NCBI GenBank assembly: GCA_021827205.1 | Contig: JAKAWV010000001.1 | Coordinates: 1-64,000, forward strand | DNA length: 64,000 nucleotides | Reading direction: 5' to 3' | From: Pseudomonadota bacterium | GTDB lineage: Bacteria > Pseudomonadota > Gammaproteobacteria > Xanthomonadales > Rhodanobacteraceae | Shown: positions 1 through 18,372 of the stretch, one piece after another | Position numbering within the stretch: the first letter of the stretch is position 1 | Layout: every line of letters begins with the position of its first letter | Translations under genes and position numbers: made by a program | The notes under the pieces: model-generated | The model's database searches: none | Seen by the model: only the letters and a program-made list of their open reading frames with translations | Told to the model about the DNA's origin: nothing

Positions 1-93
1 GCGCAGCAACGCGACCGCTCGATTGCTGTGCTCAAACGCCGCGCTGCCGCCCTCGGATTCCAACTCGAGCCGACTGCTTCGGCGGCCACATGA
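1..93 (+). CDS. C-terminal fragment, transposase-like (gene starts outside the window)
   Basis: An open frame runs from the window edge to TGA at 91-93 and gives 30 residues ending in a basic, alanine-rich tail (LKRRAAALGFQLEP). Short basic tails of this kind occur at the ends of insertion-sequence transposases, and its place at the edge of an accessory island fits that. No catalytic residue is visible, so the family cannot be named. Bases 94-183 after it hold nothing I can support. Confidence 0.35.
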   Translation, partial: AQQRDRSIAVLKRRAAALGFQLEPTASAAT

Positions 94-183
94 CCGCGAC
101 CTCAGCCACTTGTTTCTCGTAAGGTAATGGGGAGGGATGAAATGCCCTGACCCTGACCCAATGACATGCTTGAGGCCGGCGCG

Positions 184-705
184 TCACGCCGTCGCGCAAA
201 TTGGTTGGGCCAACTTGCTGCTCGATGGGCGGACTCGTGTCACGATCTGCTGTGCCCGCAGTTGCTCGCGGATCTCCATGAGCAAGGTTCCGAGCATATT
301 GCGGCCGACACCATTGACCTCGCCCCAGAGTCGATTCACCTCATTGTCGATCGTTGCGGACTCCGCCAAGCGAGCGTTTCCGGTGCTCAGCAGCAGCTGC
401 TTTAAGTCCTCGTGCTGCGAGAACTTGGCCAGGAGCACCCGGCGCATGCGATCGAACTTGTTTGTGGACCAGCCGGGGGTGATGTCCCAGTAGTATAGAC
501 CGTGGGCGGCCATCGCCAGAAGAGCGGGCGACGGGGCGGACATAAGCCAGTCCCGCACGGCCGGTTTGCGGGCCTTGCCCGCCTGATAGGCGTGTTCGGC
601 CGTCGAGTAGACCACGCCGTCCAGCTCCACCGGACGCCGGTAAAGATTGCTGAACGCCCCGTAGGGTCGCTCGTTAGCCCGGTAGAACCGAATCTCAGCG
701 GCCAT
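184..705 (-). CDS. NADAR family protein (YbiA/DUF1768-like ADP-ribose glycosidase)
   Basis: This 173-residue protein has the NADAR signatures: YGAFSN at 15-20, TAEHAYQA at 35-42 and a C-terminal WGEVNGVGRN..LG..LMEIR block at 127-146. Known family members act on ADP-ribose-linked compounds: YbiA removes damaged riboflavin intermediates, and others reverse guanosine ADP-ribosylation as partners of DarT-like toxins. The ATG is preceded by a strong ribosome site (AAGGAGGG on the minus strand). It is divergent from the small gene at 767 and lies in a defence-type island. No DarT-like toxin is visible beside it, so its substrate here is unknown. The family call is firm; the role is inferred. Confidence 0.88.
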   Translation of the reverse strand: MAAEIRFYRANERPYGAFSNLYRRPVELDGVVYSTAEHAYQAGKARKPAVRDWLMSAPSPALLAMAAHGLYYWDITPGWSTNKFDRMRRVLLAKFSQHEDLKQLLLSTGNARLAESATIDNEVNRLWGEVNGVGRNMLGTLLMEIREQLRAQQIVTRVRPSSSKLAQPICATA

Positions 706-766
706 GGTTGCCCTCCTTAAAATCGCAATATATACTAATTAAGAATTGTCATCAAGATATTTTTAA
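706..766. promoter_or_regulatory. AT-rich divergent promoter region
   Basis: The 61 bases between the NADAR gene and the small plus-strand gene are much richer in A and T than the surroundings. TATACT at 731-736 could serve as a -10 box for the plus-strand gene, and TATATT can be read on the other strand around 727-733. No clear -35 box was identified, so the promoters are inferred from composition and gene orientation. Confidence 0.4.
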
Positions 767-1126
767 TTGAAGAAGCCTGGCCGCCCGCCTGCTCCTCGCG
801 ACGACGAAGCCGCACGCATGCAGGCGCGCGCAGTTGCGGCATTGCAGGAGTCAAAGCTGAAAAAGAAGGCCCTGGCAGAGTACATTGGCCGTTCACCAGG
901 CGCTGTGGGTGCGGCCCTTTCGGCCAAGCCAGCCCGCAATTCGGACACGCTTCGGGATATTTTTAATTATTTATTCCCGCCGACCGAGGCTGTGCTCACC
1001 AAGCATGCGCGTGATCTGGCGTTGCGGGCTCCGGAGACCGCAGTGCTGCTCTCGGCGGTGTTCCGGGACATGGCGGACTTGCTCTCCGGTCAGGTGACGC
1101 TCAAGCCTGGCACACGAGGCAAGTGA
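767..1126 (+). CDS. Small basic helix-turn-helix-like protein of unknown function
   Basis: A 119-residue protein that I cannot assign to a family. Residues about 20-60 look like a helix-turn-helix (KKKALAEYIGRSPGAVGAALS), preceded by a basic AT-hook-like GRPPAPR tract, so DNA binding is plausible. The start is uncertain: TTG at 767 directly follows an in-frame stop and has no clear ribosome site, and an ATG at 818 would give a shorter protein without the GRP tract. Its 3' end overlaps the convergent kinase gene by 26 bases. It might regulate the divergent NADAR gene; this is inference only. Confidence 0.55.
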   Translation: MKKPGRPPAPRDDEAARMQARAVAALQESKLKKKALAEYIGRSPGAVGAALSAKPARNSDTLRDIFNYLFPPTEAVLTKHARDLALRAPETAVLLSAVFRDMADLLSGQVTLKPGTRGK

Positions 1127-2096
1127 CCGCGGCCGTCGATTCCCCAAACGGGTCTGGCTCGGCCGGGGCGGCGCGCTGCATGATGGTTCTCGCCACGGCG
1201 GGGCCGGATTCGTAGAGCGCACCTCGCGCCCCGGCATAGCCGGTGCTCCAGGCCGCCAAGTGCTGTGCACTGCGCAGGACCTCTTCCAGTACCGAGGGCG
1301 ATGTTTGGTCTTGTAGGCACTTCAGTGGCTCAAGCAGGCCGACCAGGATCCCTGCCGTCAGCCAGTCGCCAGCGCCGCACGTGTCGACCACGCGCGATGC
1401 ACGGACGGCCTCCATCGACCTCCATCCGGGGACTGCCTTGCCAGGCCAGCGCCACTGCAGGCCTTGGGCGCCGGATGTCCGGACTTCCAGGTAGTCGCCA
1501 GCCTGCAGCCAGGGCAGTGCGGATGCGCGATCACCGGAATACTTCACCATGTCGGCCAAGGCGAACATCGCACCTGCCCAAGGCTCATCCGCCGGGTCGG
1601 AGGGCTCATACACGACAAAAGCGCCCTGGTTCCTTGCGGCGCCAGCGAGCGCAAGAATTGCGTCCGACAAGCGATCGGCGAAGAACACGTCGAACGGGTA
1701 AGCGCCCGCCTGGGAGTCGATGCCCGCTGCGAACTTATCCCTACGGTAGCGCGGAAGTTCGCGCCCGCACACGGGGCAGTCGAACAAGAAGTGATGCTGT
1801 GCACCCATGCCGAGCTCCTCGACAATGACGGGGACGCAGGCGCCATCCCGCGCGTGATACTCGACGCCGCAGCGCTGCAGGTCGTCAAGCAGCAATGAGG
1901 AAGCCCTCGAGCCATCGGCTGGCCCCGCAGCTTGGGCGGGCCAACCGAGCGAGCCGAGGATCGCGGCCACATTCCCAGCCGTGCCGCCTGCGCGAAAACT
2001 GGCGCGTTCAGGCTGACCAGCAACACGCAAGATATCCAAGGCGATCAAGCCCACCGAAAAAATGCGAGGCGTATCACGAGGGCGAAGGCGCGCCAT
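1101..2096 (-). CDS. PfkB/ribokinase-family sugar kinase with two CxxC pairs (last gene of a five-gene operon)
   Basis: A 331-residue PfkB-fold kinase. The substrate-side GGTAGN motif is at 37-42 and the catalytic anion-hole motif DTCGAGD at 238-244, whose final Asp would be the base that activates the sugar hydroxyl. Family members phosphorylate sugars or nucleosides with ATP. Unusual features are CPVC at 107-110, inside the lid-like region, and CLVC at 326-329, five residues from the C terminus; together they could form a four-cysteine metal site. It starts two bases after the stop of the upstream gene, so translational coupling is likely. The substrate cannot be told from sequence; operon context suggests a ribose- or sugar-phosphate-type metabolite. 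Confidence 0.85.
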   Translation of the reverse strand: MARLRPRDTPRIFSVGLIALDILRVAGQPERASFRAGGTAGNVAAILGSLGWPAQAAGPADGSRASSLLLDDLQRCGVEYHARDGACVPVIVEELGMGAQHHFLFDCPVCGRELPRYRRDKFAAGIDSQAGAYPFDVFFADRLSDAILALAGAARNQGAFVVYEPSDPADEPWAGAMFALADMVKYSGDRASALPWLQAGDYLEVRTSGAQGLQWRWPGKAVPGWRSMEAVRASRVVDTCGAGDWLTAGILVGLLEPLKCLQDQTSPSVLEEVLRSAQHLAAWSTGYAGARGALYESGPAVARTIMQRAAPAEPDPFGESTAAVTCLVCQA

Positions 2097-2098
2097 GG

Positions 2099-3208
2099 TT
2101 AAAGAGAGTCGGCGTCGGGCTGAGGATATACTTCTCCAAGAACCCAGACGTGAACGAAACGATCTGGATCGGCGTCTTCGTTGAATCCTGCGGGCGGCGG
2201 TTCAAATCGCCTGGCTTCGACATAGGCTACGGGCAACGCGTGCTCCATTGCTGCAAGTAGTGCGCCGATGGCCAGTGCTTTCGACCCGATGGGCGACAGG
2301 ACCGTTTCTGACGGTTGCCCAAGGCGATCGTAGACGTCCTTGCGCGACACGTGAATTCGGGACAGCGTGCGATACAGGTCCAGCGGATCGTCCTCGGCTG
2401 CGTAGAGCATCTGGCGCGGATCCACGCCCCACGACCTGGACAGTTCATCTCCGAACTGATCCAGTAGCAGCTCGACGCTCCTAGGCTCCCGAGCCGGGAA
2501 CGGAAAAACCGGACACGTCTCTGCCGGGTCCAGTTCCTCGAAAAGAATGCCGAACGCGCCCTTTTTCGGATTGGCGAGTTGCGGAATCCAGAGGCGTACG
2601 GGTGTGTCGCCCGGGGAACTGGCTCCCTTGAATCCCCAAGGGTTCTGATAGTTCTCCGCGTGCTCGGCAACGATCGCCGTTTCGACCTCCGGGCCACCGG
2701 CTGCTGCCACGACGTGCAAGTTGGGGCCGCCTGCGCAATTGCGTAACAACTCGAACAAAAGACCCACGATCGGGAAGCTGATGCCGATGGACATGGCGCT
2801 CATGTCCACGATGACATCGGTGATGCCGTTCAGCCCGTTCTCATCGCGGAGGCGGCGGCGTAGTTCGGTAACGATTCTGTGTCCGCCAACGACCGCATAG
2901 TCTTCATCGAAAATTTCGATGGAGATGACTTCGCTGTCGGGAAATGCATCGCGCAGGCTGTCTTCATTGGCCTGGGCGCGGTCGAGAAGCGCCTGTTCGG
3001 GCTCGGGGCGGTTCTCCCGCAGAAAGATGCCCTTTCGCCGGGCGTGCGTCTTTCTGACGATGAGTGCAAGGTGCGAAGCCCTGGGATCGAATCCCGCACC
3101 GGCAATGTACAGCACAAAACGCTCGGGTTGGCCCAGCAAACTGTGGATAAACGGCTCGACCTCCGGACCACGGTGGCTGACGCCGTCCAACCAAAGCATG
3201 CGTTTCAC
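2099..3208 (-). CDS. Orphan Rossmann-like protein of the five-gene operon
   Basis: I do not recognise this 369-residue protein. Two beta-strand/glycine patterns suggest a Rossmann-type alpha/beta fold: FVLYIAGAGFDPR at 31-43 and DVIVDMSAMSIGISFP at 131-146, the second followed by a hydrophobic helix and a glycine-rich VVAAAGGPEVE strand. The C-terminal half is mixed alpha/beta with no recognisable motif. The arrangement loosely recalls ligand-sensing Rossmann domains of conflict systems (CARF/SAVED-like), but the diagnostic residues of those families are not evident. It overlaps the ATPase gene upstream by four bases (ATGA) and precedes the kinase by two. It could be the sensor or the effector of the operon. 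Confidence 0.75.
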   Translation of the reverse strand: MKRMLWLDGVSHRGPEVEPFIHSLLGQPERFVLYIAGAGFDPRASHLALIVRKTHARRKGIFLRENRPEPEQALLDRAQANEDSLRDAFPDSEVISIEIFDEDYAVVGGHRIVTELRRRLRDENGLNGITDVIVDMSAMSIGISFPIVGLLFELLRNCAGGPNLHVVAAAGGPEVETAIVAEHAENYQNPWGFKGASSPGDTPVRLWIPQLANPKKGAFGILFEELDPAETCPVFPFPAREPRSVELLLDQFGDELSRSWGVDPRQMLYAAEDDPLDLYRTLSRIHVSRKDVYDRLGQPSETVLSPIGSKALAIGALLAAMEHALPVAYVEARRFEPPPAGFNEDADPDRFVHVWVLGEVYPQPDADSL

Positions 3209-5133
3209 GCTGCACCCCCGTCGAGCAGATTCATGAGGGCAGCGAGGGTGATGGGAACGAAGCCACCCCTGCGCGGCGTCAATCCATTGAAGGCGATGAC
3301 GGGGCCGCTCAGTTCCAGGATGGTCCAGATCCTGCCCTTCGTCTTTCGGCCATGGATCAGCGTGAAGGCGTTATAGCCGACACCAAAGCGCAGCGTCTCG
3401 ACGAGCTTGGGATGATCTACGATCTTGGCAAAGTCGCCCCGTTCAATGCCGATCGCGTTAGCGCCCCCACCCAGCGGCGCCGTGGGTTCCAAGCTTCGAG
3501 TGAGACACATCGCGACAATGCCTACCACCAGTTTGCGCACCGAAATGGCATGCGGGAAGCTCCACTCGCGAATGATCTTCTCGCTGGCCTTGCGGATCGC
3601 GTCGTGCTGTTGCTTCACGTCAAGGCTGGTGGATTGGTCGCCGCGTGTGATCTCCTGTGTTTGGAGCAAACGGACCAATTCCCACGCAAGCCCGAGAAAG
3701 GTCTCGACATTCTCCGTGCCAAGGTCCGCGACGGTGTCCAGACCGCCCAAATACGGCACCTTCAGCTTGTGCCAGAGATGAACCTGCGCGCCCGCGGCAA
3801 CTTCGATATCCGCCTCGACGACAACCTCCTCCGCCAAGGATTCGTCACTTTGGGCGTCGAACAGGGGCTGCTGAGGCGTGCGTTTGAACTGCCGGTGCAA
3901 CAAGATGGCCACCATGGCCGGAGCGATTGTTTCCGTGTCGAGATCGGCTTGCCGGCCTAGGTAGTCATAGACACGATGACAGATCTGCTCCACCTGTACG
4001 GGCGGAATTTTCAAGTCGGCGGCCGCGGTCTCCGATAGCTGCCGAATCTGCTCTTTCTGGCGCTCAGTGGCGATCGCTTTGACGGCCAAACCAGAGAGGG
4101 TGGTGATGCCGTTTCTTGACAGGTCCGGAAGTTGCGCCATATACCGGGAAGCAATTTCTGCCGCGGCGCGTCGGAACGCCTTGCGGACCGCTCCGCGCTT
4201 TTCTTCCGGCGCCTGGGTCATCCGGACATCGACCACAGTGCGCTGTCTCTGAATGTTGTCAGTGGCGGGCACCGCTCCAGTCTCACCCCAAATCAACGCG
4301 TCCCTCGCATCCAGGGCCTCCATGCGTTGAAGCACCCACCTGGCCATGGTGACTTCCCGTAGGGTCAGGTGCTCCATCAGTGCCTTGTGCTGTGCGCGAT
4401 CCGCCCAGTGCGCATCGTCGATCATCAACAACGGCTTCAATGGTTCTGTATAGCCGGGCACTTGAAATCCATCGAACGCGAGAAGTGGATAGAATGATCC
4501 TCCCAAGCTTTGCAGCAGCTTTTCCTCCGAGGGCGGCACGAAGCTTGCCGTAAGGTCGTAGATAATGGATTCCACTTGCACGGCGCGCACGGCGACCTTG
4601 CCGAAGTTGGTGCCGCCAAGGTGCTCGAGGCGTGCTCCTCCCAGCGGCGTCGGCACGATCTCCACATCTTCAGGCGCGATACCCGCATCCTCGAAGGCCT
4701 GTCGCCAAGACAGCACCGCACGGGCCCCCACCAAGCTCAACATCAACTCGTGCGCTCGATGCGGCGTATAACCGATGAGCGCAAGCTCCCGGTAGTCGCG
4801 CTCGAAGGAAATTCGGGCTCCGAATATCACCGGGCGGCCGTCCTGGATGAAGCCACGCTCGATCGCGAAATCCATGAGCTCGTCGTAAACGCGATCCGAC
4901 GTCCGTTGCACTTGCTCGGCCAGGCGTCTGAGGGTGGTGAACTGGAAAAAGCGAGCAAGCGTGGTCTTGCCGCTGCCTGGAGGCGCAGAGAACACCGTCG
5001 TCTTGTTGAGCAGCTCATGCGGATCGTCGTAGTGATCCAGCGTCATCCTGAACAGGGACGGGGCAAGCGTCGCCAGGAATTCCGCTTCGTTGCGCCGGTA
5101 CTCGCTCGCACGCTGTTGGAAAGGGTTTGGCAT
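3205..5133 (-). CDS. Large P-loop ATPase (AAA/ORC-like) of the five-gene operon
   Basis: A 642-residue ATPase. Walker A is SAPPGSGKTT at 49-58, and a probable Walker B is LLMIDDAHW at 235-243, with the acidic pair of AAA/STAND-type ATPases. About 180 residues separate the motifs, more than in compact AAA domains, and the C-terminal 380 residues are mostly helical and unassigned. From memory, ORC/CDC6-like ATPases have been reported beside phosphoribosyltransferase-like effectors in predicted conflict systems, which would fit, but I cannot verify homology. Its start lies five bases after the phosphoribosyltransferase gene and its stop overlaps the next gene by four. It could act as a switch or trigger-sensing component. 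Confidence 0.8.
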   Translation of the reverse strand: MPNPFQQRASEYRRNEAEFLATLAPSLFRMTLDHYDDPHELLNKTTVFSAPPGSGKTTLARFFQFTTLRRLAEQVQRTSDRVYDELMDFAIERGFIQDGRPVIFGARISFERDYRELALIGYTPHRAHELMLSLVGARAVLSWRQAFEDAGIAPEDVEIVPTPLGGARLEHLGGTNFGKVAVRAVQVESIIYDLTASFVPPSEEKLLQSLGGSFYPLLAFDGFQVPGYTEPLKPLLMIDDAHWADRAQHKALMEHLTLREVTMARWVLQRMEALDARDALIWGETGAVPATDNIQRQRTVVDVRMTQAPEEKRGAVRKAFRRAAAEIASRYMAQLPDLSRNGITTLSGLAVKAIATERQKEQIRQLSETAAADLKIPPVQVEQICHRVYDYLGRQADLDTETIAPAMVAILLHRQFKRTPQQPLFDAQSDESLAEEVVVEADIEVAAGAQVHLWHKLKVPYLGGLDTVADLGTENVETFLGLAWELVRLLQTQEITRGDQSTSLDVKQQHDAIRKASEKIIREWSFPHAISVRKLVVGIVAMCLTRSLEPTAPLGGGANAIGIERGDFAKIVDHPKLVETLRFGVGYNAFTLIHGRKTKGRIWTILELSGPVIAFNGLTPRRGGFVPITLAALMNLLDGGAA

Positions 5134-5138
5134 GGCTG

Positions 5139-6275
5139 TTACTTGCTATGACGACTGCGGCGGTAAAACAGCGGGCGCATCGCGTGCACTTGCGCGCCTT
5201 TTCCTTCGGATCGGGCCCACAGCAATGCGACGGAATTATTCGGCGTGTTGTGGTCAAGTACCAGCGGCAATGCGCACCCAGCGTAACCCATGCCCAAATG
5301 CTTCACGCCGCCCTTGTCGGTCGAGGGCGTCTGAATGCCGGCGTCGTAGTATTTCCGCGTCAGCGCAAGAAAGTCAGGATCACCGTCAGGGGTAAGCGGG
5401 AACCCGTTGGTGAGCCGATAGCTATGGGTCACTTCCATGTTCTCAAACCAGGGCAGATCGTCGGGCGATTCTTCCTTCGCTTGGCGCACCGCATCGTTCA
5501 GGTGCTCGATCGCCTTGTCGGTAATGATCAGGTGGTGGATCACGAGCGTCCACTCCTTGGACTTGACGTTTTCCCCGTTCTTCAAGGATCGCAGGAAGCG
5601 CATCAGCTTGCCCTTCCACACACGCTTGCCATGCTCATCGACTTCTGGCCGGATGAAAGACGTTCCGGAGCCAGCGAAGTCGTCTACCAGATAGATCGTG
5701 TTGAAAGTCGGGTCCTGCAGTGCCTTGAGATCGCCGAGATCCTTGGCGAGTTCCTGTCGCAGATCGTCCCACTTCTCCGGGTCGAGCTGAATCCCGACCA
5801 CCACCTGCTCGTTCGAGATCCTGCCGACATTGACATGCCGGAACGAGTCCAGGCGAGCGCCGTCGCTCAAGCCGAGAAACAAGGTGCGGCGGCGCGTCAC
5901 TTCCAACTGGTGGAGGGCGTCGTTGTCGGCATAAACCTGCCAGGGAGCGATGCCACGATCATCGGCAACACTCTTGAGCAACCGCGGGAGAACGGTTTGC
6001 GGATACATGATCTCGACCAGCCGCTCCCGTTCCACTGCGCTGATGAAGGCCAACCGGTGACGCACGAATGCGTAAGCCGCGGGCCGGTCCTGAGAATCGA
6101 ACTGCAACAACCATCCAAGCAAGCTTTCCAAAAAACGCATGCCCGCCAGGAAATCCCGGTAGCTGTCGTATTTGACAGCGGAGATCAGCCGGAGCCACTG
6201 GAATTCTTCCTGGGCCTTGTCCAAGTCCCATTGCATGACCTTGCTGAGCATCCGCAGCGCGATGGTTTCATTCAT
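5139..6275 (-). CDS. Phosphoribosyltransferase-like protein of the five-gene operon
   Basis: A 378-residue protein with the phosphoribosyl-pyrophosphate binding loop of type I phosphoribosyltransferases, TIYLVDDFAGSGTSF at 193-207: two acidic residues after hydrophobic residues, then small residues and the GSGTS turn. The first 190 residues are helical and precede this core. A conserved-looking C-terminal motif, HNTPNNSVALLW at 342-353, is not found in ordinary nucleotide-salvage enzymes. I recall such proteins being called PRTase-CE in work on conflict systems, but cannot check it here. Enzymes of this fold join ribose-5-phosphate to a base or remove it. The gene overlaps the upstream SIS-HAD gene by eight bases. 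Confidence 0.83.
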   Translation of the reverse strand: MNETIALRMLSKVMQWDLDKAQEEFQWLRLISAVKYDSYRDFLAGMRFLESLLGWLLQFDSQDRPAAYAFVRHRLAFISAVERERLVEIMYPQTVLPRLLKSVADDRGIAPWQVYADNDALHQLEVTRRRTLFLGLSDGARLDSFRHVNVGRISNEQVVVGIQLDPEKWDDLRQELAKDLGDLKALQDPTFNTIYLVDDFAGSGTSFIRPEVDEHGKRVWKGKLMRFLRSLKNGENVKSKEWTLVIHHLIITDKAIEHLNDAVRQAKEESPDDLPWFENMEVTHSYRLTNGFPLTPDGDPDFLALTRKYYDAGIQTPSTDKGGVKHLGMGYAGCALPLVLDHNTPNNSVALLWARSEGKGAQVHAMRPLFYRRSRHSK

Positions 6276-8175
6276 TCGTCCGTCCCTTGAATCGCAGCAG
6301 TCCCTTGGATGCCTCGAAGAGTTTCAACTGGTAGCAGGTTGCCGCCACCTGCCGGCGAGAAGTGCCCGCGAGATTCCAGCAGCGGTCCTCGGCGCTCGAG
6401 CACTGGTCCGCTGACAGGCTCAAGGGCATCTGCAACAACTCGAAGTCGTTCCCCGGCCATCGCCCCCGATCGCCAACGCACAACACATCCTTTGGCAGGC
6501 AATTTGCTTGCGCTGCTATGGTGCTGATGACATTCCGCTTGGATACCCCCGCTGAAACGATATCAATGGAGTGCGAAGACTGCCACACCGTGAGTTGGCC
6601 GGCGTCTACCAGATCCTGCAAAGCCGCGGCGACCTCGCACCAGGCCTCGCTAAGGCTGCGTCCGTCGAGAAGCGAGACCGAGCATTGCTGGGCATACGCC
6701 CGGCACCGCCCCCGTCCTGGCCTGAGCACATAGCGCTCGATGCGCTCCCTGGCTTCCTGGATCACGGCATCTGGTTCGGCTGCAGTCGGTTCCAGTCCGC
6801 TCAAGGGCTGAATGACGGCGCCGTTGTAATAGCCAATCGAAACGCGTTCCCAGAGGTCTTGAGGCAACTGCTTGCGAAGTTCTTCACCGCACGAGCCACC
6901 GCGCCCAGTGGCGATGCCGACATGCACCTCAGCGGCCAGCAATCGGCGCAGCTCATCGACGATTGACGGCTCCAGCGGTTCATACCGCCGAGACGATTCG
7001 ATCAGGGTGCCGTCGAAGTCGAAGACCACGGCAGGAATGTCCGCAGCTTGGAGTTTTGCCCGGTAAGCCCGCAGCCTGTCCAGCCAGGAGGCGAATTCCG
7101 CTTCGCTCAGGGAGGGTGCGTGCCGGCCGAGCTTGGCTATGACGATTTGCTCGTCGAAGGATGCAGCGGCGTGCTGTGGCGTGGTAGGCACAGCGAGCTT
7201 GTAGATCTGTTCGCCAAAGGCGGGGACGCCCGGGCGTCCCGGATCCCGGTGGATCCGATCCCCCATGCGCTGGGCAACGAACATGGAGGCTGCGATCGAA
7301 GCGAGCCGGGCTTGGGATCCGGCAAAGGGCACCTCGATGCGCCAGGCTGGCGAGGCCTCGCCGATGAGGGCGACCGTCCGGTCGGCTAGCGGCAGATACG
7401 GCGGTGTGGCGAAGCATAGCGCTGCCGTCGCCGCTCCCCGGTCGGCGAACCAGAAATGCCGTCCATGTCCCAGGTTGCGTAGGTCCGACACCCAGACGTT
7501 TGCCAAGGCCGCTTCGGTTGCCCGCATCTCCAAATCAGCGAGTCCCAGCATCGTCTCTGGGTCCCCGATGCCCACAACATCGCCACCCCACTCGGGAAGA
7601 CCTTCGATGGTCGTTTTGGCCCAATCCAATAGGTGCTCCACTTCCCCGACCGACACCTCAGTCAGATCACCAAACGCCGCTTGGTATGCGCGCTCCAGAA
7701 GCAGGCAGGAGGCCCAGAGACTGTTGGTGGCCAGAAACCCGTCGCCACCGGCGGAGAGCGCAAACGCCACGGTCCGACTGGCGCCATAGCCGGCCAGAGC
7801 CCGCTGTAGCGGCGTGTCTTCGGATCCGATCAGTGCCGTGATGGATTGTGCGCCGGCCGAAATTGCATGCTCACACGCCTGGAGGATATCGGAATTACGC
7901 CCGCCGGCACTGAGTAGCCACACGCAGCCGCGCGCGTAAGACGCACTGCTCTGGAAGATTAGAGGGGTAACGACTTGGCAGGGGCGGCCGAGCCTTTCCT
8001 GATGGATTTCGGCCAGGTATTGGGCAGGGGTCCGGGATCCACCCGAGGCGACAATGACCAAGCCATGCCCTGCGCTGTCCTCAACGGCGTGCTTGAGCCG
8101 TTCAATGGGAAATGCGTACGACTCCTCGGTCGTGCGACCCAGCTTCTGGAGTTCCTCGCGGTACGGCTTCCCCAT
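6268..8175 (-). CDS. SIS (phosphosugar isomerase-like) - HAD phosphatase fusion, first gene of the five-gene operon
   Basis: A 635-residue two-domain protein. Residues about 25-340 form a double SIS region (SGGS at 44-47, LLSAGGRNSD around 87-96, a second half near NLGHGRHFWF at 234-243), the phosphosugar-binding fold of GlmS and phosphosugar isomerases. Residues 380-600 are a HAD phosphatase with DFDGT at 386-390 (nucleophile Asp386, acid/base Asp388), a second motif IATGRG, Lys546, and a fourth motif GDRGRWPGND at 568-577. ATG at 8175 has a modest GAGAAG ribosome site; an upstream ATG at 8217 would add 14 poorly folded residues. The fusion suggests handling of one phosphorylated sugar followed by dephosphorylation; the substrate is unknown. 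Confidence 0.86.
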   Translation of the reverse strand: MGKPYREELQKLGRTTEESYAFPIERLKHAVEDSAGHGLVIVASGGSRTPAQYLAEIHQERLGRPCQVVTPLIFQSSASYARGCVWLLSAGGRNSDILQACEHAISAGAQSITALIGSEDTPLQRALAGYGASRTVAFALSAGGDGFLATNSLWASCLLLERAYQAAFGDLTEVSVGEVEHLLDWAKTTIEGLPEWGGDVVGIGDPETMLGLADLEMRATEAALANVWVSDLRNLGHGRHFWFADRGAATAALCFATPPYLPLADRTVALIGEASPAWRIEVPFAGSQARLASIAASMFVAQRMGDRIHRDPGRPGVPAFGEQIYKLAVPTTPQHAAASFDEQIVIAKLGRHAPSLSEAEFASWLDRLRAYRAKLQAADIPAVVFDFDGTLIESSRRYEPLEPSIVDELRRLLAAEVHVGIATGRGGSCGEELRKQLPQDLWERVSIGYYNGAVIQPLSGLEPTAAEPDAVIQEARERIERYVLRPGRGRCRAYAQQCSVSLLDGRSLSEAWCEVAAALQDLVDAGQLTVWQSSHSIDIVSAGVSKRNVISTIAAQANCLPKDVLCVGDRGRWPGNDFELLQMPLSLSADQCSSAEDRCWNLAGTSRRQVAATCYQLKLFEASKGLLRFKGRTNE

Positions 8176-8481
8176 TGCGCTTCTCAGTTCGACCCGGCCC
8201 CAGAGAGTCAGAATCACGCTCTGCCTGGCCCTAAGTCATACGGGGCCGGTGCTCGCGGCTTGGACGAGCGTGGATCAGATCAACAAGCTGTCCCACTCCC
8301 CCTTGAGTAGCTGGATTGGTACATCTGCCATGGTTCGACGAGGAGCTTACCAAGTTCCATGGCATGTTCCCAAGGACAGAAGCTATCACCTGTGGTAGCC
8401 GCGACCAAAAGGGTACGAAGATATCCGGGACATCAAGGCGAGCCGCCATGTTTGCTGCGAGAATCGAAGGGGGATGTGGCC
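8176..8481. promoter_or_regulatory. Divergent intergenic region with inverted repeat between the five-gene operon and the Gabija pair
   Basis: These 306 bases separate two divergent defence-type operons and hold no convincing gene. TGCCATGG at 8326-8333 and CCATGGCA at 8357-8364 form an 8-base inverted repeat with a 23-base spacer, and each half contains the self-palindrome CCATGG. This could be an operator read by both promoters. GAAGGGGG at 8466-8473 is the ribosome site of the gene at 8482. No strong -10/-35 pair was recognised. Confidence 0.45.
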
Positions 8482-10296
8482 ATGCGGATCAGCGAGCTGC
8501 GCATCGAAAATTTCCGCGGCATCCGATCTGGATATATCCGGTTCGGACAGCACAGCGTCCTAGTAGGCCCCAATAACTGCGGCAAGACCACAATCATCGA
8601 GGCGCTCGCCTTGCTCTTCGGCCGCGATCGCATGGTCAGGACGCTCACCGAGCATGACTTCTTCGGAGGAAATCCACAGCCGACCGACCGCATCCGTCTT
8701 ATCGCGACAATCATCGACTTTGAGGGGGACAACTTTGCGGATTTCCCGGAATGGTTCCGGGACGACCGCGGGATTCCAAATTGGTGGAACCCCGCGACCG
8801 GAACCGTATCACCCAGACGCACCGACGCGAGCTGTCGCCTAGCCTGCCAGATCGGTTTCTGTGCACGCTTCGACCGCGCCGAGCTCGAGGTCGAGATGGT
8901 GCGGTACTTTCACGACGACGAAGTTGGAGATCTGTTCGTCGAGCAGTCTGCTACGGGCGTGCCAAGTCGACTTATCCGCGAGATCGGCTTCTTCCTGGTG
9001 CCCGCCAACCGCAGCTGGGATCGTGTGTTGTCGTTCGAGTCTGAGCTGTTTCGCCGCGTCGTCGCGTCGGCAGGTGGGCAACCTTCAGAGTCCGTGCTCA
9101 GGGAGCGCGACCGGCTGCGAGCGCCGGCGCAGCCGCTCGAAACCGATCCGCATCTGTTGCCGATCGTGAATGCGCTCAATGCCGAGCTGGCCGGCTTCTT
9201 TCGCGCCGGACCTAAGCTGCAGTTGCGTGTGACGGCCACGGACAGTGACGGTTTGCTTGAAGCTGTCGTGCCGCATTACGCCCAGGCTGACGCGCTCGGA
9301 TTGCCCGCCCGGCGTCATGGTAGCGGGCTGATCTCGTTGCAGCATTTGCTTCTGTTACTGCAGTTCGGGCACCAACGTGCACAAGCAGGCGAAAGCTTCT
9401 GGATGGCGCTGGAGGAGCCCGAACTGCATATACCGCCCCCACTTCAGCGGAGACTCGTTCACCGAATCCAGGCCCTTTCTACCCAAACGTTCGTGTCGAC
9501 GCATTCACCTATGGTCGCAGCGATGGCAGACCCGAGTTCGGTCATGATGCTTCGGAACGAAGGCGGTATCTTGAGCGCGGTGCCACTACTCCCCGCCTCA
9601 CTCTCGGCAGCGACGCCGAACGGGGTGCGGAAGCTGTACCAGCTAAATCGCACGGATACGATCGCGGCGCTGATGCACGACGCGGTACTCGTGCCTGAAG
9701 GCCGGATCGACTACGAGTGGATGAAGCTCCTTGTGCGCGTGGTGGATTTGAGCCAAGGATGGACTCAGACCGAGGAGAGCCGGTTCGGCGCCTATATTGG
9801 CTTGGTCCCGACGCACGATGCAGCCGTGCAGACGACAATCGAAGCGCTGACCGGACTCCATCCACGAATTACGGCACTGGTCGACGGCGATAAGGCGGGC
9901 CAGAATTACGCAGCGGGGCTGATCGGGGCGTCCCTGCGTCCAGCGGTGATCGTACGCTGGCCGGATGGTTGGATGGTCGAAGACGTCGTCGGTTGGATTT
10001 TGGACGCAGATCCTGCCCAGGCGCTTCAAGCCGTCAAGGCCATGATCACACCTGCACCGGTGTCGATTGCAGACTTGGTAGCGCGGCTCAAATCTGGGGA
10101 TCGCACCACAGGCGGCCTCAAGCAGGACCATGTCGCCTATGAGGCCGTTGCGGACGTGATCGGCACCCACAAGCCGTGCTGCCAACGTGCGCGCGAGCTA
10201 CTGAACGGATTGAGCGACGTGCTCCTAGGTGGCGCAAACCCAAGGTTCGAAGTCGTGCTTCCGGCCGAGGCCAACCTTAGAATTTTCCGACCATGA
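8482..10296 (+). CDS. gajA: GajA-like OLD-family ATPase with TOPRIM nuclease domain (Gabija)
   Basis: A 604-residue protein with an SMC-like ABC ATPase followed by TOPRIM. Walker A GPNNCGKTT is at 29-37, the signature-like SGLISLQ at 281-287, Walker B LEEPELHIP at 310-318 and the switch histidine STHSP at 339-343. The TOPRIM domain shows the metal-binding Glu406 (VPEG) and the DxD pair Asp468/Asp470 (VDGDKAG). GajA is a nucleotide-gated DNA nuclease that protects against phages in complex with GajB. ATG at 8482 follows a clear ribosome site. The next gene overlaps by four bases and encodes a UvrD-like helicase, the Gabija arrangement. Solitary OLD nucleases also look like this, but the partner supports Gabija. 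Confidence 0.86.
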   Translation: MRISELRIENFRGIRSGYIRFGQHSVLVGPNNCGKTTIIEALALLFGRDRMVRTLTEHDFFGGNPQPTDRIRLIATIIDFEGDNFADFPEWFRDDRGIPNWWNPATGTVSPRRTDASCRLACQIGFCARFDRAELEVEMVRYFHDDEVGDLFVEQSATGVPSRLIREIGFFLVPANRSWDRVLSFESELFRRVVASAGGQPSESVLRERDRLRAPAQPLETDPHLLPIVNALNAELAGFFRAGPKLQLRVTATDSDGLLEAVVPHYAQADALGLPARRHGSGLISLQHLLLLLQFGHQRAQAGESFWMALEEPELHIPPPLQRRLVHRIQALSTQTFVSTHSPMVAAMADPSSVMMLRNEGGILSAVPLLPASLSAATPNGVRKLYQLNRTDTIAALMHDAVLVPEGRIDYEWMKLLVRVVDLSQGWTQTEESRFGAYIGLVPTHDAAVQTTIEALTGLHPRITALVDGDKAGQNYAAGLIGASLRPAVIVRWPDGWMVEDVVGWILDADPAQALQAVKAMITPAPVSIADLVARLKSGDRTTGGLKQDHVAYEAVADVIGTHKPCCQRARELLNGLSDVLLGGANPRFEVVLPAEANLRIFRP

Positions 10297-11558
10297 CTTT
10301 GTTCGCCATCGAAGGCGCCGCAGGCTGCGGCAAGACAGTTCGTCTCATTGCTGCGCTTCGGGAGGCGCTGTCGGAAGCGCCGCTCCGCGACGGTCAGCGC
10401 GTGCTTGCGCTGACCTTCATGCATGGCGCCCGACGTCGACTGCACGACAAGCTGCGCGATATCGTTGACTTGCGAGGCCGGCTCCACTGCGTGACCGTTG
10501 ACAGTTTTGCCCAGCGACTGGTTATGCGCTGGCGCGGTCTCGGGACGACGCTCGGCGTAACAGCACTCCAACCCGACCAGTATGACGAGCAATGCGATGC
10601 TGCGGGGCTGCTGCTCGAGCAGTCTGAAGTGGCTGGCTGGGTCGCTGCGAGCTTTCCGATCGTGCTGGTCGACGAAGCCCAAGATCTCAAGCCGCAGCGA
10701 CTGCGGATGATCTCGGCGCTGACCGGATCGACAAGGCTCATGGTCGCCGCAGACGACTTTCAGTGCCTCGACCCATCGTTGCGGCCAAGTCCGTGCGTAA
10801 TATGGCTGCGTCAGGCCTGCACGCCGGTCGAGCTGACCCAGATTCATCGCACGTCGATGAGTGGCTTGCTCACGGCTGCGGCTGCAATCCGCGCAGGCAA
10901 TGCGCCGGCGGATGGGCAAGGCTTCAAAATTCTCGCCGCTAAGGGCCTCGGAATGGCTGCCGTATTTCTCGCCAACGCGATCGCCTGGCGCCACGAGGGT
11001 GAGGTGGCGGTCATCACTCCCTCCATGAGCGGCGGCTTTGCGCAGGGGGTGGTGGCGTGCGTCGGCAAAAAGGCCCTCGGGAAGAAGCAAAACGGCCCGT
11101 ACACAATTCATTGGGAGCGCTCGGAGGAGAATGAAACCGATGCGCTGCTGGCGGAATTTCAGCTCGGAGACAGCGCTAGCCTGGCCGACACGATCACTGC
11201 GCTTCGCCAGCTCCCGGCATCGGGAGTCGTGCGCGGCGTGATGGGCTGGGCGCGTCGACAGGCGCATGCGGCGGGTGTGACGAGCTTTAATCGTGCAGAG
11301 GTCGCAGCAGCGGTTCGGCGTCATGTTGTCTTGCGCCGTCAGCACGCCGGAAGCAACCAGGCGAAGTTCGCCGCCATGACCGTACAGCAGGCAAAGAATC
11401 GGGAGTTCGAAGGCGTGGTGGTGCTGTGGCCGTATCAGGTCGGTGGTGATGCCGAGCATAAGCGAAGGCTGCTCTACAACGCGATTACCCGCGCCCGACG
11501 CTGGTGCACGGTAGTCCTGCAGAGTGAGAATCTACTTCGCGTCGCTCCATTTGCTTGA
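10293..11558 (+). CDS. gajB: GajB-like UvrD/Rep-type helicase, short (Gabija)
   Basis: A 421-residue superfamily 1 helicase-like protein. Walker A GAAGCGKT is at 8-15, a Thr/Ser-Phe motif TVDSFAQR near 68-75, Walker B VLVDEAQD at 124-131, an IHRTS motif around 174, and a motif VI-like LLYNAITRAR near residue 393. In Gabija, GajB senses DNA ends and activates GajA. The protein is shorter than typical GajB (about 490 residues), mainly through a reduced 2B-like insertion, yet all nucleotide-binding motifs remain. It overlaps gajA by four bases and is surely co-translated. Downstream begins a non-coding stretch with mobile-element debris. Confidence 0.82.
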   Translation: MTLFAIEGAAGCGKTVRLIAALREALSEAPLRDGQRVLALTFMHGARRRLHDKLRDIVDLRGRLHCVTVDSFAQRLVMRWRGLGTTLGVTALQPDQYDEQCDAAGLLLEQSEVAGWVAASFPIVLVDEAQDLKPQRLRMISALTGSTRLMVAADDFQCLDPSLRPSPCVIWLRQACTPVELTQIHRTSMSGLLTAAAAIRAGNAPADGQGFKILAAKGLGMAAVFLANAIAWRHEGEVAVITPSMSGGFAQGVVACVGKKALGKKQNGPYTIHWERSEENETDALLAEFQLGDSASLADTITALRQLPASGVVRGVMGWARRQAHAAGVTSFNRAEVAAAVRRHVVLRRQHAGSNQAKFAAMTVQQAKNREFEGVVVLWPYQVGGDAEHKRRLLYNAITRARRWCTVVLQSENLLRVAPFA

Positions 11559-11851
11559 CCTAGCGGTCTCCTTGTGCGCGAGCAGGTTCGCTTGCGGGTG
11601 AACGCCACGGCGCTCCCCGGCCCCTTGGTGCGAATGGGAAGCAACGGCAACCTTCCTGGCGGATCGTTGCATTCGATTGAGGCGGTCTGATCCGGGTAGC
11701 GGACACTTTATGATTCCCAGCCCCGGACACTTTATGGTTTCGCGCACACACGCATCGGCACGGGTTTCCGCTGGCGTTGATGGGTTGCGCCCCGCCTGCT
11801 GCATGATGGCCCGCGCTGACTCCAAGGGCGTGCAGGCATTACGCTTGCCGC
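11559..11851. other. Non-coding stretch at the island boundary
   Basis: These 293 bases separate gajB from the first core gene. I see no supportable gene. They contain the insertion-sequence-like direct repeat at 11701-11736, listed separately, and no recognisable tRNA or attachment site. Confidence 0.5.
11701..11736. repeat. Direct repeat GGACACTTTATG, probable insertion-sequence end remnant
   Basis: GGACACTTTATG occurs at 11701-11712 and again at 11725-11736, a 24-base period. Repeated short motifs of this type are seen at the ends of some insertion sequences, for example the multiple terminal repeats of the IS21 family. No transposase is attached, so this would be a remnant. The assignment rests on pattern memory; the repeat itself is seen directly. 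Confidence 0.5.
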
Positions 11852-12310
11852 ATGAACCTGGATCCTCCGTCATCTGCGACATCCGCCTGGCTCTACGTGC
11901 TGGCCCAGTTCGGCCTGCTCGCTGCATTGCTGGTGGTGCCGCCGTGGCAGTGGGAGTGGCGGTTTGCCGGCAGCGTGCTGCTGCTGCTGGCGGCGCTGCT
12001 GGGCGCGTGGACGCTGCTGCACAACCGCCCCGGCAACTTCAACGTGCAGCCGCAGCCGCGCGCGCGTGGGCATCTGGTGACCGACGGGCCATATCGCCGG
12101 GTGCGCCACCCGATGTACATCGCTGTGCTGCTGGGCGCGGCGGGCTGGGCGGATTGCGCCGGCGGCGCGTGGCGCGTGTTGATCGTGCTGGCACTGCTGC
12201 TGGTGCTCAATGCCAAGGCCGCCTTGGAGGAACGTCTGCTGCTGGCGCGCTGGCCCGAGTACGCGGCGTATCGCGCACGCACGTGGCGCTTCGTGCCGGG
12301 GCTCTGGTGA
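11852..12310 (+). CDS. Isoprenylcysteine carboxyl methyltransferase-family membrane protein
   Basis: A 152-residue integral membrane protein with two hydrophobic segments near the N terminus (about 13-53) and another at 88-120. The GPYRRVRHPMY motif at 79-89 is the hallmark of the ICMT/phospholipid methyltransferase family and forms part of the S-adenosylmethionine site; the C-terminal E-x-L-L-x-x-W-P-E-Y region agrees. Bacterial members methylate small membrane-associated substrates, mostly unknown. Its high GC content matches the chromosome, so it marks the return to core sequence after the island. It is convergent with plsB, seven bases apart. Confidence 0.8.
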   Translation: MNLDPPSSATSAWLYVLAQFGLLAALLVVPPWQWEWRFAGSVLLLLAALLGAWTLLHNRPGNFNVQPQPRARGHLVTDGPYRRVRHPMYIAVLLGAAGWADCAGGAWRVLIVLALLLVLNAKAALEERLLLARWPEYAAYRARTWRFVPGLW

Positions 12311-12317
12311 CGCGGCG

Positions 12318-14825: not shown

Positions 14826-14832
14826 CGGTCGA

Positions 14833-15810
14833 TCAGGGCTTGCGCGCGTGCGCGCTGGTGACCACGGCCGGTGTCGCGACCCGATGCGCGCTGGCGGCGC
14901 TGGCCGGAGCCGCGGCACTGGCCGGCCTGGCTACGCTGGCGGCCGCGGCCGGCTTGGCCAGCACCGCGCGCCAATGCAGCAAGGTGTCGCGGTCGTACCA
15001 ACGGCCGTCCTGCTTGATCAGCGTGCTGTCGCGCGTAACCGGCGTGCCCAGCACGTCGAAGGTGGTGCGCACCACGGCCACGTTGCCATCGTCGGACAGC
15101 ACCTTGATTTGCGCGGTATCCAGGATGGTGTCGATCGAAAGGCCATACACGTCCAGCGCCTGCTTGACGCCACTCCACAGGTGACCGACGTCTTTCATGG
15201 CCTCGGGATAGGGCATCGACAGTGCTTCGTTCAGGGTGCGGAAGCTCATTTTCTGCGCCGTGGCGGTGAGCACGCCCAACGCTTGGTAGACCTTGTCCGG
15301 GTTCAGCCAGTCGGTCTTCTCGGCCCATGCGCTGAGCACGCCCAGCGCCGTGAGCGCCTGCACTTTCTCCGCGGCCGTAAGCCGGGTCGAGCGCTGCACG
15401 CCGGTATCAGCCATGGTGCGCAGCATGCCCAGCATCGTCGGCAGCCGCGCCTGATATTGCTGGCGCGCCCGCAGCAGCCTGGGCTTCATCTCGACCCACA
15501 GCAATTGCTGGGCACCGGGAGCGCTGAGCAGGGTCATCATCCGGGCGAATTGCGCGCGGTCGGCCGGCGAGAACTGGCTCAGATTGCGATCCAGGCCCCA
15601 GCGCGCGCGCATCGCCGCGTAGTCGGCCGGAGGCAGGGCGTGGCGGTACAGCCCATCGATGTCGTTGTCGCGCAGCAGCTTGTAGCCATCGGCCACGGCG
15701 GCCTGCGGGGTGCCGCCGCCGGGGGTCACTTCCTCGGTGTGGCGCGAGCAGGCGGCCAAGGCCAGCAGCGCGAGCGTCAGCAGCAAGGCGCGCAGCGGAT
15801 ACTTGAACAT
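14833..15810 (-). CDS. Predicted lipoprotein, function unknown
   Basis: A 325-residue protein with a type II signal peptide: basic start, hydrophobic core and lipobox LALAAC ending at Cys21. The mature part (about 30-285) is helical and ends in a small beta-rich region around LSDDGNVAVVRTTFDVLG that resembles lumazine-binding/NTF2-like lipoprotein domains, followed by an Ala/Pro-rich low-complexity tail after residue 290. No enzyme motif is evident. It lies eight bases upstream of plsB in the same direction, suggesting an envelope-related role. The 267 bases between its start and the divergent peptidase gene hold promoters only by inference. Confidence 0.8.
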   Translation of the reverse strand: MFKYPLRALLLTLALLALAACSRHTEEVTPGGGTPQAAVADGYKLLRDNDIDGLYRHALPPADYAAMRARWGLDRNLSQFSPADRAQFARMMTLLSAPGAQQLLWVEMKPRLLRARQQYQARLPTMLGMLRTMADTGVQRSTRLTAAEKVQALTALGVLSAWAEKTDWLNPDKVYQALGVLTATAQKMSFRTLNEALSMPYPEAMKDVGHLWSGVKQALDVYGLSIDTILDTAQIKVLSDDGNVAVVRTTFDVLGTPVTRDSTLIKQDGRWYDRDTLLHWRAVLAKPAAAASVARPASAAAPASAASAHRVATPAVVTSAHARKP

Positions 15811-16077
15811 GGGGTGGTTTCCGGGACGCAATCGCGGCAGGGTAGGTGCGGGTGCCGGTGCTGGCAAGCATCCGGTCGCGTATGGAACGGGCAAGATATC
15901 GGAAACAGAGAGTTCCTGCGCATTTTCAACGCGGCGCAGCGCGGTACACGCCCGCGCTGGTCTCCGAAGATTGATCACTTGCGATGATGGATCGCGTCGT
16001 GCAAGCCGCATCCCCGGCTGGCGCCGCGGCGCGCGCGCGGGTCTAATCGCAGGCTGTCCCCAATCCGGTCTGCCCGC

Positions 16078-18336: not shown

Positions 18337-18351
18337 CGATTCGGTCAACGC

Positions 18352-18372
18352 CTGCGACACAACCTGTCGCAG
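18352..18372. promoter_or_regulatory. Operator-like perfect inverted repeat upstream of the tandem-AAA gene
   Basis: Arms CTGCGACA (18352-18359) and TGTCGCAG (18365-18372) are exact reverse complements around a 5-base spacer. The site ends 44 bases before the start codon of the ATPase gene. Its symmetry and place fit the operator of a dimeric repressor, and the WYL-domain regulator two genes downstream is the obvious candidate. A weak terminator for the peptidase gene is an alternative, though no T-run follows. Confidence 0.55.

What the first reader, a model, noticed from the sequence alone, without database searches (positions are those of the whole stretch)
1101..8175. Five-gene operon of sugar/nucleotide enzymes plus ATPase and an orphan protein: candidate new conflict or signalling system
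Seen: five minus-strand genes with junctions of -8, +5, -4 and +2 bases encode a SIS-HAD fusion, a phosphoribosyltransferase-like protein, a large P-loop ATPase, an unassigned Rossmann-like protein and a PfkB kinase. Known families: these catalyse phosphosugar binding, dephosphorylation, PRPP chemistry and sugar phosphorylation. Inference: the operon makes, modifies or destroys a ribose- or nucleoside-like small molecule under control of the ATPase. Predicted Ter-type stress systems also combine phosphoribosyltransferase and HAD enzymes to make a nucleoside-like metabolite, but the SIS-HAD/PfkB set differs. It lies in a defence-type island.
Basis: partly seen in the sequence, partly recalled or inferred. 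Interest (0 to 1): 0.93.

Follow-up and report, generated by a model that had tools for sequence, protein, structure and literature searches.

The report
Mobile five-gene phosphoribosyl conflict system
A block of five genes that stay together on plasmids and in genomes of very different bacteria pairs a predicted sensor with a ribose-attaching enzyme and sugar-phosphate enzymes, and looks like an undescribed relative of known virus-defence systems whose chemistry is still unsolved.

Summary
The operon is real and is a conserved unit. All five lie together in 70 of the 80 closest genome loci (of 324 found; 11 phyla among the 80); the other ten are cut by contig ends. So they do on 16 of 19 plasmids with a PRTase relative. 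Only 3 of 197 same-family genomes carry the PRTase: accessory, not housekeeping. Two modules co-evolve: PRTase/ATPase/CARF6 and SIS-HAD/PfkB. A NADAR N-glycosidase is an optional sixth gene (31 of 76 loci; window 184-705). The PRTase belongs to the family of type III retron effectors, which also occurs as a PRTase/ORC-CDC6/CARF6 triad beside DNA methyltransferases and as PRTase-NADAR pairs, some in or beside defence loci. Best reading: a mobile, probably anti-phage system in which a sensor gates a PRTase making an N-ribosyl product, processed by sugar-phosphate enzymes and erasable by NADAR. Anti-phage activity and all substrates are untested. New variant of a known kind.

The parts
6268..8175 (-). 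SIS-HAD fusion: sugar-phosphate isomerase/deglycase-type SIS region (about residues 15-370 of the ORF) plus HAD-IIB phosphatase (about 395-600)
   Evidence: HAD-IIB 1.6e-11 over cut-off; SIS profile match to NagB-II structures 4e-5 with the whole profile and 0.0018 with SIS alone, E235 aligned near/on their 'LKLKE' Glu; S58-G60, E235, H251, K362, D400, D402, T437, K560, D583, N590, D591 invariant in 33 of 33
5139..6275 (-). PRTase-CE phosphoribosyltransferase, predicted effector/writer
   Evidence: PF24390 2e-13 over cut-off; PADLOC PRTase_III-A (retron) 6.5e-11; D198, D199, G204 and H342, N343, N346, N347 in 34 of 34
3205..5133 (-). ORC/CDC6-like AAA+ ATPase, predicted sensor/switch
   Evidence: PF24389 1e-5, below cut-off; G53, G55, K56, T57, D239, D240 invariant in 29 of 29; the triad relative at L140 matches PF24389 at 1e-126
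2099..3208 (-). CARF6-family protein, predicted ligand-binding switch or partner of the PRTase
   Evidence: PADLOC CARF6 PDLC01916 5e-82 over residues 10-363; no Pfam or NCBIfam match and no significant PDB-sequence relative; distances track PRTase r=0.96 and ATPase r=0.96
1101..2096 (-). PfkB-family sugar/nucleoside kinase, ribose-1-phosphate-kinase-like, with a CPxCG insert
   Evidence: PF00294 6e-15; NF053626 ribose-1-phosphate kinase model matches 32 of 32 members at E<=0.01 (P0001 far below the model's cut-off); G37, G38, D238, G241, G243, D244 in 32 of 32
184..705 (-). NADAR (YbiA-type) N-glycosidase, optional sixth component, predicted eraser
   Evidence: PF08719 1.2e-25; TIGR02464 4e-23 over cut-off and NF053876 'NADAR family anti-phage protein' 3e-16 below cut-off; beside the cassette in 31 of 76 assessable loci; YbiA structure 2b3w 1.4e-26
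767..1126 (+). small HTH-like putative regulator, divergent from NADAR and convergent with PfkB
   Evidence: no family match in four libraries; iterated profile finds it in 10 loci, the window included, each time beside NADAR; genes in the same place in L008-L010 are annotated helix-turn-helix
8359..10296 (+). neighbour, not part of the system: GajA/OLD-like ATPase of a Gabija-like pair
   Evidence: PADLOC GajA 1.6e-46
10293..11558 (+). neighbour, not part of the system: GajB-like UvrD helicase, short (421 aa)
   Evidence: PADLOC GajB 2.8e-20

Best explanation
A mobile conflict (probably anti-phage) system built on a PRTase-CE enzyme. SHOWN by sequence: a core triad (PRTase-CE, ORC/CDC6-like AAA+ ATPase, CARF6) co-inherited with a sugar-phosphate pair (SIS-HAD, PfkB), with NADAR as an optional sixth part; the catalytic columns checked are intact. 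INFERRED: the ATPase, possibly on DNA, together with CARF6 holds the PRTase inactive until infection. The active PRTase then uses PRPP to put a 5-phosphoribosyl group on a nitrogen of a nucleotide, nucleic-acid base or other amine, which halts growth or phage replication. SIS-HAD (sugar isomerase or deglycase plus phosphatase) and the ribose-1-phosphate-kinase-like PfkB process the ribosyl-phosphate part or recycle what is released. NADAR, a ribosyl N-glycosidase, removes the mark.
For: Co-occurrence: 87 of 102 loci hold all five; of the 15 that do not, 11 are cut by a contig end. Accessory and mobile: 3 of 197 same-family genomes, plasmids, 11 phyla among 80 loci, first 11.6 kb of the window 61.5% G+C against 66.7%. 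Defence kinship: PRTase-CE is the type III-A retron family; 15 of 31 sampled PRTase-CE loci are PRT-RT pairs, and PRTases are called probable retron effectors of unknown action in PMC9122126 (passages). Triads without sugar enzymes lie beside a DNA methyltransferase in 3 of 3. PRTase-NADAR pairs (6 of 31) lie in an Hma-type locus (L137; same layout in L138) or beside GajA (L159) or type IV restriction (L157) genes. N-ribosyl chemistry: NADAR beside PRTase-CE in two separate groups of the PRTase tree, with NADARs only 23-35% identical between them. Two modules: r 0.93-0.96 within the triad, 0.95 SIS-HAD/PfkB, 0.82-0.86 between.
Against: No phage or toxicity test exists. NADAR is missing from 45 of 76 assessable cassettes, and all 12 tested genomes whose cassette assessably lacks it have none at all, so it cannot be essential; NADAR distances follow the other five only loosely (r 0.47-0.67, n=33). 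None of the 15 retron, 3 triad and 3 other PRTase-CE loci sampled has a NADAR match. The ATPase misses the Pfam cut-off. The PRTase has no significant PDB relative by sequence (orotate PRTase at E=0.16). The SIS match is weak. No fold could be predicted. The sister of the five-gene PRTases is in a Streptomyces biosynthetic-looking cluster (L017), so part of this branch may be plain metabolism. Of the pair neighbours tested in L158 and L160, none matched a defence model. No acceptor is known.
Confidence: 0.45

Rival explanations
1. Second-messenger signalling: the PRTase with SIS-HAD and PfkB makes a nucleotide-like signal from PRPP, CARF6 senses it, and the ATPase (or a host protein) is the effector.
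For: CARF6 is filed among CARF proteins in PADLOC; CARF6 and PRTase track each other closely (r=0.96) and are together even without the ATPase in L017.
Against: No nuclease, TIR, membrane or protease effector matches P0001-P0005, and none was seen among the recurrent neighbours. The triad also occurs without the sugar enzymes (L140, L154, L155). CARF6 has no PDB-sequence relative to support ligand binding.
Confidence: 0.22
2. A plasmid-borne metabolic operon (for example salvage or deglycation of ribosylated or Amadori-type compounds: PfkB kinase plus SIS deglycase plus phosphatase), with no defence role.
For: Fructoselysine 6-kinase is a weak match for 15 of 32 PfkB members; SIS E-X15-H and Lys are invariant, which from recall fits GlmS isomerases and FrlB/FraB deglycases alike; many carriers are rhizobial plasmids; L017 lies among biosynthetic genes. 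An ABC-type ATPase cluster occurs in the flanks of 5 loci (2 within 1.5 kb) and an RND-type transporter in 4 (1 within 1.5 kb), judged by eye from one sequence each.
Against: No transporter lies regularly beside the cassette; the neighbours that do are NADAR, small HTH-like genes and, on mostly rhizobial plasmids, an RHE_PE00001-family gene, the rest being mainly integrases, transposases and conjugation or restriction genes. An AAA+ ORC/CDC6-like ATPase, CARF6 and a retron-family PRTase are not expected in a catabolic operon.
Confidence: 0.2
3. PRPP or nucleotide depletion: the PRTase burns PRPP (or degrades nucleotides in reverse), starving phage replication, and the sugar enzymes keep the ribose phosphates from being recycled.
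For: Intact PRPP motif in 34 of 34; a phosphatase and a ribose-1-phosphate-kinase-like enzyme in the same operon.
Against: Does not explain the recurrent NADAR, whose known chemistry is cleavage of N-ribosyl bonds; retron and triad relatives occur without the sugar enzymes.
Confidence: 0.1

Closest known systems
Type III-A retron PRTase effector (PADLOC PRTase_III-A / RT_III-A)
   Same: Same PRTase-CE superfamily (6.5e-11 here; one Pfam family PF24390); PRTase called probable effector with unknown action (PMC9122126, passages)
   Different: No reverse transcriptase among the nine window proteins tested; instead ATPase, CARF6 and sugar-phosphate enzymes; the five-gene PRTases form their own group (SH-aLRT 92; 98 with L017)
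PRTase-CE / ORC-CDC6-like / CARF6 triad (as at L140, L154, L155; Pfam PF24390 + PF24389, PADLOC CARF6)
   Same: Same three proteins in the same order; presumably the source of those family names (inference)
   Different: Triads lack SIS-HAD and PfkB in the fetched stretches and lie beside a DNA methyltransferase in 3 of 3; the window ATPase is distant (24.8 bits against a cut-off of 27)
PRTase-NADAR pairs (L137, L138, L157-L160), some in or beside Hma, Gabija or type IV restriction genes
   Same: PRTase-CE next to a NADAR
   Different: No ATPase, CARF6 or sugar-enzyme match in the fetched stretches; PRTases form a separate group; NADARs 23-35% identical to those of the five-gene system
DprA-PRTase anti-phage pair (PMC9122126, passages)
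   Same: A PRTase proposed as effector gated by a DNA-sensing partner
   Different: DprA in place of an AAA+ ATPase; relation of the two PRTases not tested here
Ter-type PRTase/HAD systems (recalled; mentioned in PMC5512222 passages)
   Same: PRTase and a predicted nucleoside-derived product in a stress/defence context
   Different: No Ter-family match in the nine proteins tested

Membership tests
PRTase-CE (PF24390) | Match over the curated cut-off and an intact PRPP DD motif | tested here: met
   51.2 bits against 27; D198, D199, G204 in 34 of 34
ORC-CDC6-like (PF24389) | Match over the curated cut-off | tested here: inconclusive
   24.8 against 27 bits; two five-gene ATPases (L150, L151) also match the profile built from the triad ATPase
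CARF6 | Match to a PADLOC CARF6 model | tested here: met
   PDLC01916 5.4e-82, residues 10-363 of 369
CARF6 | Rossmann-type CARF fold binding a nucleotide ligand | not testable with these tools
   Structure prediction switched off; best PDB-sequence match E=0.87
Type III retron | Retron reverse transcriptase beside the PRTase | tested here: not met
   No reverse-transcriptase match among the nine window proteins or in the four five-gene loci
CBASS / Thoeris type signalling | Cyclase (CD-NTase) or TIR synthase with a separate effector | tested here: not met
   No such match in P0001-P0005
Ter-type stress system | TerD/TerC-family proteins in the operon | tested here: not met
   No such Pfam match in the nine proteins
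FrlD/FrlB-type deglycation pair | PfkB kinase and SIS deglycase specific for Amadori products | tested here: inconclusive
   Fructoselysine 6-kinase matches 15 of 32 PfkB members, ribose-1-phosphate kinase 32 of 32; SIS nearest to NagB-II, weakly
NADAR, YbiA type | NADAR family with Glu in the last strand | tested here: met
   PF08719 1.2e-25; E144 in 13 of 14, D in 1; that this column is the diagnostic residue of PMC11125620 (passages) is my reading of the YbiA alignment
Anti-phage defence system | Lowers phage plating or kills infected cells | not testable with these tools
   Needs an experiment

The most novel reading that the evidence does not exclude
A writer/eraser immunity based on N-ribosylation with PRPP as donor: the PRTase writes phosphoribosyl on a nucleotide or nucleic-acid base of infected cells; the SIS domain then locks it by an Amadori-type aldose-to-ketose rearrangement (the logic of TrpD-TrpF and HisG-HisA, recalled) while HAD and PfkB set its phosphorylation; NADAR erases the unlocked mark. 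The same mark would be what type III retron PRTases make, so this system would expose the unknown chemistry of a whole class of defence effectors.
Probability: 0.13. Interest if true: 0.92.

Novelty: new variant of a known kind. Interest (0 to 1): 0.66.

Why it matters
PRTases are proposed effectors of type III retrons and of a DprA pair, with mode of action unknown (PMC9122126, passages). This branch adds two sugar-phosphate enzymes and often a NADAR, whose known chemistry is cleavage of N-ribosyl bonds. That narrows the likely product to a ribosylated nucleotide, base or amine and gives enzymes with which to trap or erase it, so an open question becomes directly testable. It also links PRTase-CE and NADAR in two separate groups of the PRTase tree.

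Tried and rejected
Housekeeping sugar pathway: rejected (no such regular neighbours). Retron: no RT. NADAR supplied in trans: rejected in 12 of 12 genomes whose cassette assessably lacks one; a 13th genome in that call, that of L084, could not be judged because its contig ends 194 bases after PfkB, and it has one NADAR on another contig. Heptose-type pathway (SIS+PfkB+HAD as GmhA/HldE/GmhB, recalled): not favoured; the HAD is type IIB and no nucleotidyltransferase matched in P0001-P0005. Class-level search with the single PRTase found only the window's own genome among 369: accessory, or too distant for that search. Viral contigs with single proteins: nothing; with the alignment: 3 loci. Literature: all ten searches used and no description of the five-gene set seen in their listings or in the passages read. 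DefensePredictor (PMC13092281, passages) names a PRTase in a figure legend and NADAR domains among its hits; I could not tell whether either belongs to such a system. Two papers I recalled as most likely to discuss it (Makarova 2020 CARF classification; Burroughs & Aravind 2020) are not held, so prior mention cannot be excluded. Defence-island statistics for the 80 genome flanks against a control were not run.
Full report
What is there. The five minus-strand genes are real, at the stated places and junctions. Family searches give SIS-HAD, PRTase-CE (PF24390, over cut-off), an AAA+ ATPase just under the ORC-CDC6-like cut-off, a CARF6 protein (PADLOC, 5e-82) and PfkB. Upstream of the window's plus-strand start of the operon lie a NADAR gene (184-705, minus) and a small divergent gene (767-1126, plus); on the other side a GajA/GajB-like pair (8359-11558). 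The window begins at the first base of contig C7 of a 3.04 Mb, 43-contig genome. The first 11.6 kb has 61.5% G+C against 66.7% for the rest of the window.

Is it a unit? tblastn against 72,556 plasmid records found relatives of CARF6 in 17, ATPase in 17 and PRTase in 19 records. All 19 PRTase records were fetched. A PRTase alignment (A1) scanned against one genome for each of 84,980 species found 324 relatives, of which only the best 80 are held, so the co-occurrence count below is for the closer relatives; viral contigs gave 3 more. With profiles grown from the window proteins (score over 25 bits), 87 of 102 loci have all five families. Of the 15 without, ten genome loci and one viral locus run into a contig end; four are real: L013 and L103 lack PfkB, L015 has the PRTase alone, and L017 (Streptomyces) has a PRTase and a CARF6-like protein alone. 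The 80 genome loci name 60 Pseudomonadota, 9 Planctomycetota and 11 others in nine more phyla.

Gene order is rearranged in blocks: SIS-HAD/PRTase/ATPase/CARF6/PfkB (window type) and PRTase/ATPase/CARF6/SIS-HAD/PfkB are the main forms, and the triad PRTase-ATPase-CARF6 keeps its order (one apparent exception, L058, comes from an over-long ORF start). Pairwise distances over 83 loci, the window included (L001, L005, L007, L015 and L017 left out beforehand), correlate 0.93-0.96 within the triad, 0.95 between SIS-HAD and PfkB and 0.82-0.86 between the two blocks, against shuffled maxima of at most 0.19; NADAR correlates 0.47-0.67 with the five (n=33, shuffled maxima up to 0.39). That is the pattern of two modules joined early and inherited together, with NADAR more loosely attached.

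Accessory and mobile. Of 197 genomes of the same family, 3 have the PRTase (the window's own among them), and none of the 12 other same-genus genomes listed does. Of the 17 plasmid loci that carry the triad or more, 11 have an integrase, recombinase or transposase within the fetched 9 kb by the records' own, incomplete annotation (my count: L002-L004, L006, L009-L011, L016, L018-L020). Clustering of flanking ORFs (clusters in at least 4 loci) shows at the cassette NADAR (35 loci, all within 1.5 kb), small HTH-like genes (clusters of 17, 8 and 4 loci, all within 1.5 kb; some of these may be other ORFs, the L075 representative had no Pfam match and the L010 one matched HTH models just under cut-off) and an RHE_PE00001-family gene (10 loci, 8 within 1.5 kb, mostly rhizobial plasmids). 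The other clusters look like integrases, recombinases, plasmid, conjugation and transposition genes, anti-sense ORFs, an ABC-type ATPase (5 loci, 2 near), an RND-type transporter (4 loci, 1 near) and a methyltransferase cluster (4 loci, 2 near) of which one member (L065) was checked and is type I. Gabija-like genes lie near the cassette in the window and L031; L004 has a weak GajB match, and L004 and L005 have UvrD and AAA genes by annotation.

NADAR. In 76 loci with at least 1.2 kb beyond both ends, PfkB without NADAR occurs in 45, both in 29, NADAR without PfkB in 2 (L013, L103), neither in 0. L151 is a third locus with NADAR and no PfkB. Of 12 tested genomes whose cassette assessably lacks NADAR, 12 have none anywhere; a further one, L084's, has one elsewhere but its cassette cannot be judged; the 7 genomes with a local copy each gave one match, at that copy. 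The NADARs are far more conserved than the rest (70% mean identity, n=33, against 36-48% for the five) and are YbiA-like.

Wider family. PF24390 was searched in 398 Pseudomonadota genomes (18 over cut-off) and in 326 genomes of the phylum of L084, Bacteroidota by its record (17 over cut-off); 4 of 14 control genomes rang at E<=0.001, none over the cut-off. I fetched 31 of the 36 places over cut-off (17 and 14; the window itself, the L084 place and three weak places were not fetched). Contexts: 15 retron-type PRTase+RT, 4 five-gene systems (one without PfkB), 3 triads without sugar enzymes, 6 PRTase-NADAR pairs, 3 others (one a PRTase fused to an OLD-like TOPRIM). NADAR matches occur in all 6 pairs and 3 of 4 five-gene loci, and in none of the other 21. 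All three triads sit beside a DNA methyltransferase. Of the pairs, L137 lies between HmaA- and HmaB-type genes, with L138 of the same layout; L159 lies beside GajA and L157 beside type IV restriction/Orf5-type genes; the tested neighbours in L158 and L160 had no PADLOC match at 1e-8. In a quick ML tree of 51 PRTases the five-gene PRTases form one group (SH-aLRT 92; with L017, 98) and the pairs another (100); several rows have long branches and the deep order is unsure, so one old PRTase-NADAR association is not excluded.

Chemistry. Columns expected to be catalytic are invariant: PRTase D198, D199, G204 (34 of 34); HAD D400, D402, T437, K560, D583, N590, D591 and SIS S58-G60, E235, H251, K362 (33 of 33); PfkB G37, G38, D238, G241, G243, D244 (32 of 32); ATPase G53, G55, K56, T57, D239, D240 (29 of 29). 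The HMMER alignment to NagB-II structures brings the 'SKFTEAAL' stretch of E235 onto their 'LKLKEVCA'; that this Glu and a His 16 residues on are the GlmS/FraB-type catalytic pair is recalled. The motif around D583 carries an insert (GDRGRWPGND) relative to the aligned phosphatases. PfkB matches a ribose-1-phosphate kinase model in 32 of 32, fructokinase in 28 and fructoselysine 6-kinase in 15 of 32 at E<=0.01; for P0001 all lie far below the curated cut-offs. NADARs hydrolyse guanosine-ADP-ribose and are linked to riboflavin intermediates, and E. coli ybiA shares an operon with ybiB, of predicted phosphoribosyltransferase activity (PMC11125620, passages).

Interpretation. The triad's kinship with retron effectors and methylase-linked triads, together with mobility, makes a conflict role likely (my estimate 0.7). 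The exact chemistry is open (0.35 for the N-ribosyl product model with sugar processing and NADAR erasure). Because PRTase-CE proteins occur without SIS-HAD/PfkB elsewhere, the near-constant presence of these enzymes here should change either the donor, the product or its removal. That NADAR and PfkB are never both absent hints that they touch the same ribose metabolite (inference from 76 loci of uneven relatedness, in 74 of which PfkB is present anyway).

Novelty. The parts are named in Pfam and PADLOC, and the triad is probably what those names were made for (inference). The union with SIS-HAD, PfkB and NADAR was not seen in ten full-text searches; the two papers most likely to mention it could not be read. 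I file it as a new variant of a known kind.

Noticed in passing
L017 (Streptomyces scopuliridis plasmid) 1-19000: A PRTase-CE relative and a CARF6-like protein (PADLOC 1.8e-6) sit together without the ATPase in a biosynthetic-looking cluster annotated with PRPP synthetase, inositol-monophosphatase-family, glucose-6-phosphate isomerase and PEP-mutase-family genes. It may show the pair acting in small-molecule synthesis.
   Followed up: partly
L137 6102-8035 and L138 6333-8267: A PRTase-CE and NADAR pair lies between HmaA-type helicase and HmaB-type methylase genes (PADLOC match shown for L137), as if grafted into an Hma defence locus.
   Followed up: partly
L139 6402-7949: PRTase-CE fused to an OLD-like TOPRIM domain (PF24395, 2.6e-26), followed by a dynamin/GTPase-like gene.
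   Followed up: no
L007 1-13161 and L009 9001-19128: Second copies of the triad (L007) or its start (L009) beside the first on Rhizobium tumorigenes and Sinorhizobium meliloti plasmids; in L007 a patatin-like phospholipase gene lies between the copies.
   Followed up: no
window 1716-1784 (P0001 residues 105-127): The PfkB carries a CPxCG insert that weakly matches the Rad50 zinc-hook model (0.0066, below cut-off); first Cys conserved in 31 of 32, second in 25 of 32. Possibly a metal-bridged dimer.
   Followed up: no
L002, L004, L007, L018, L019, L020, L030, L031, L051, L055 upstream of the cassette: An RHE_PE00001-family gene recurs (10 loci, 8 within 1.5 kb), mostly on rhizobial plasmids; it may be a plasmid gene at a shared insertion site or a regulator.
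   Followed up: no
window 8359-11558: Gabija-like GajA/GajB pair divergent from the operon; the GajB is short (421 aa).
   Followed up: no
window 37454-37555: TPP riboswitch on the plus strand (Rfam RF00059, 70.8 bits).
   Followed up: no
L005 9001-15987; L059 13059-15590; L063 11147-14716: Cassettes with genes in pieces or interrupted; described only, not mended.
   Followed up: no
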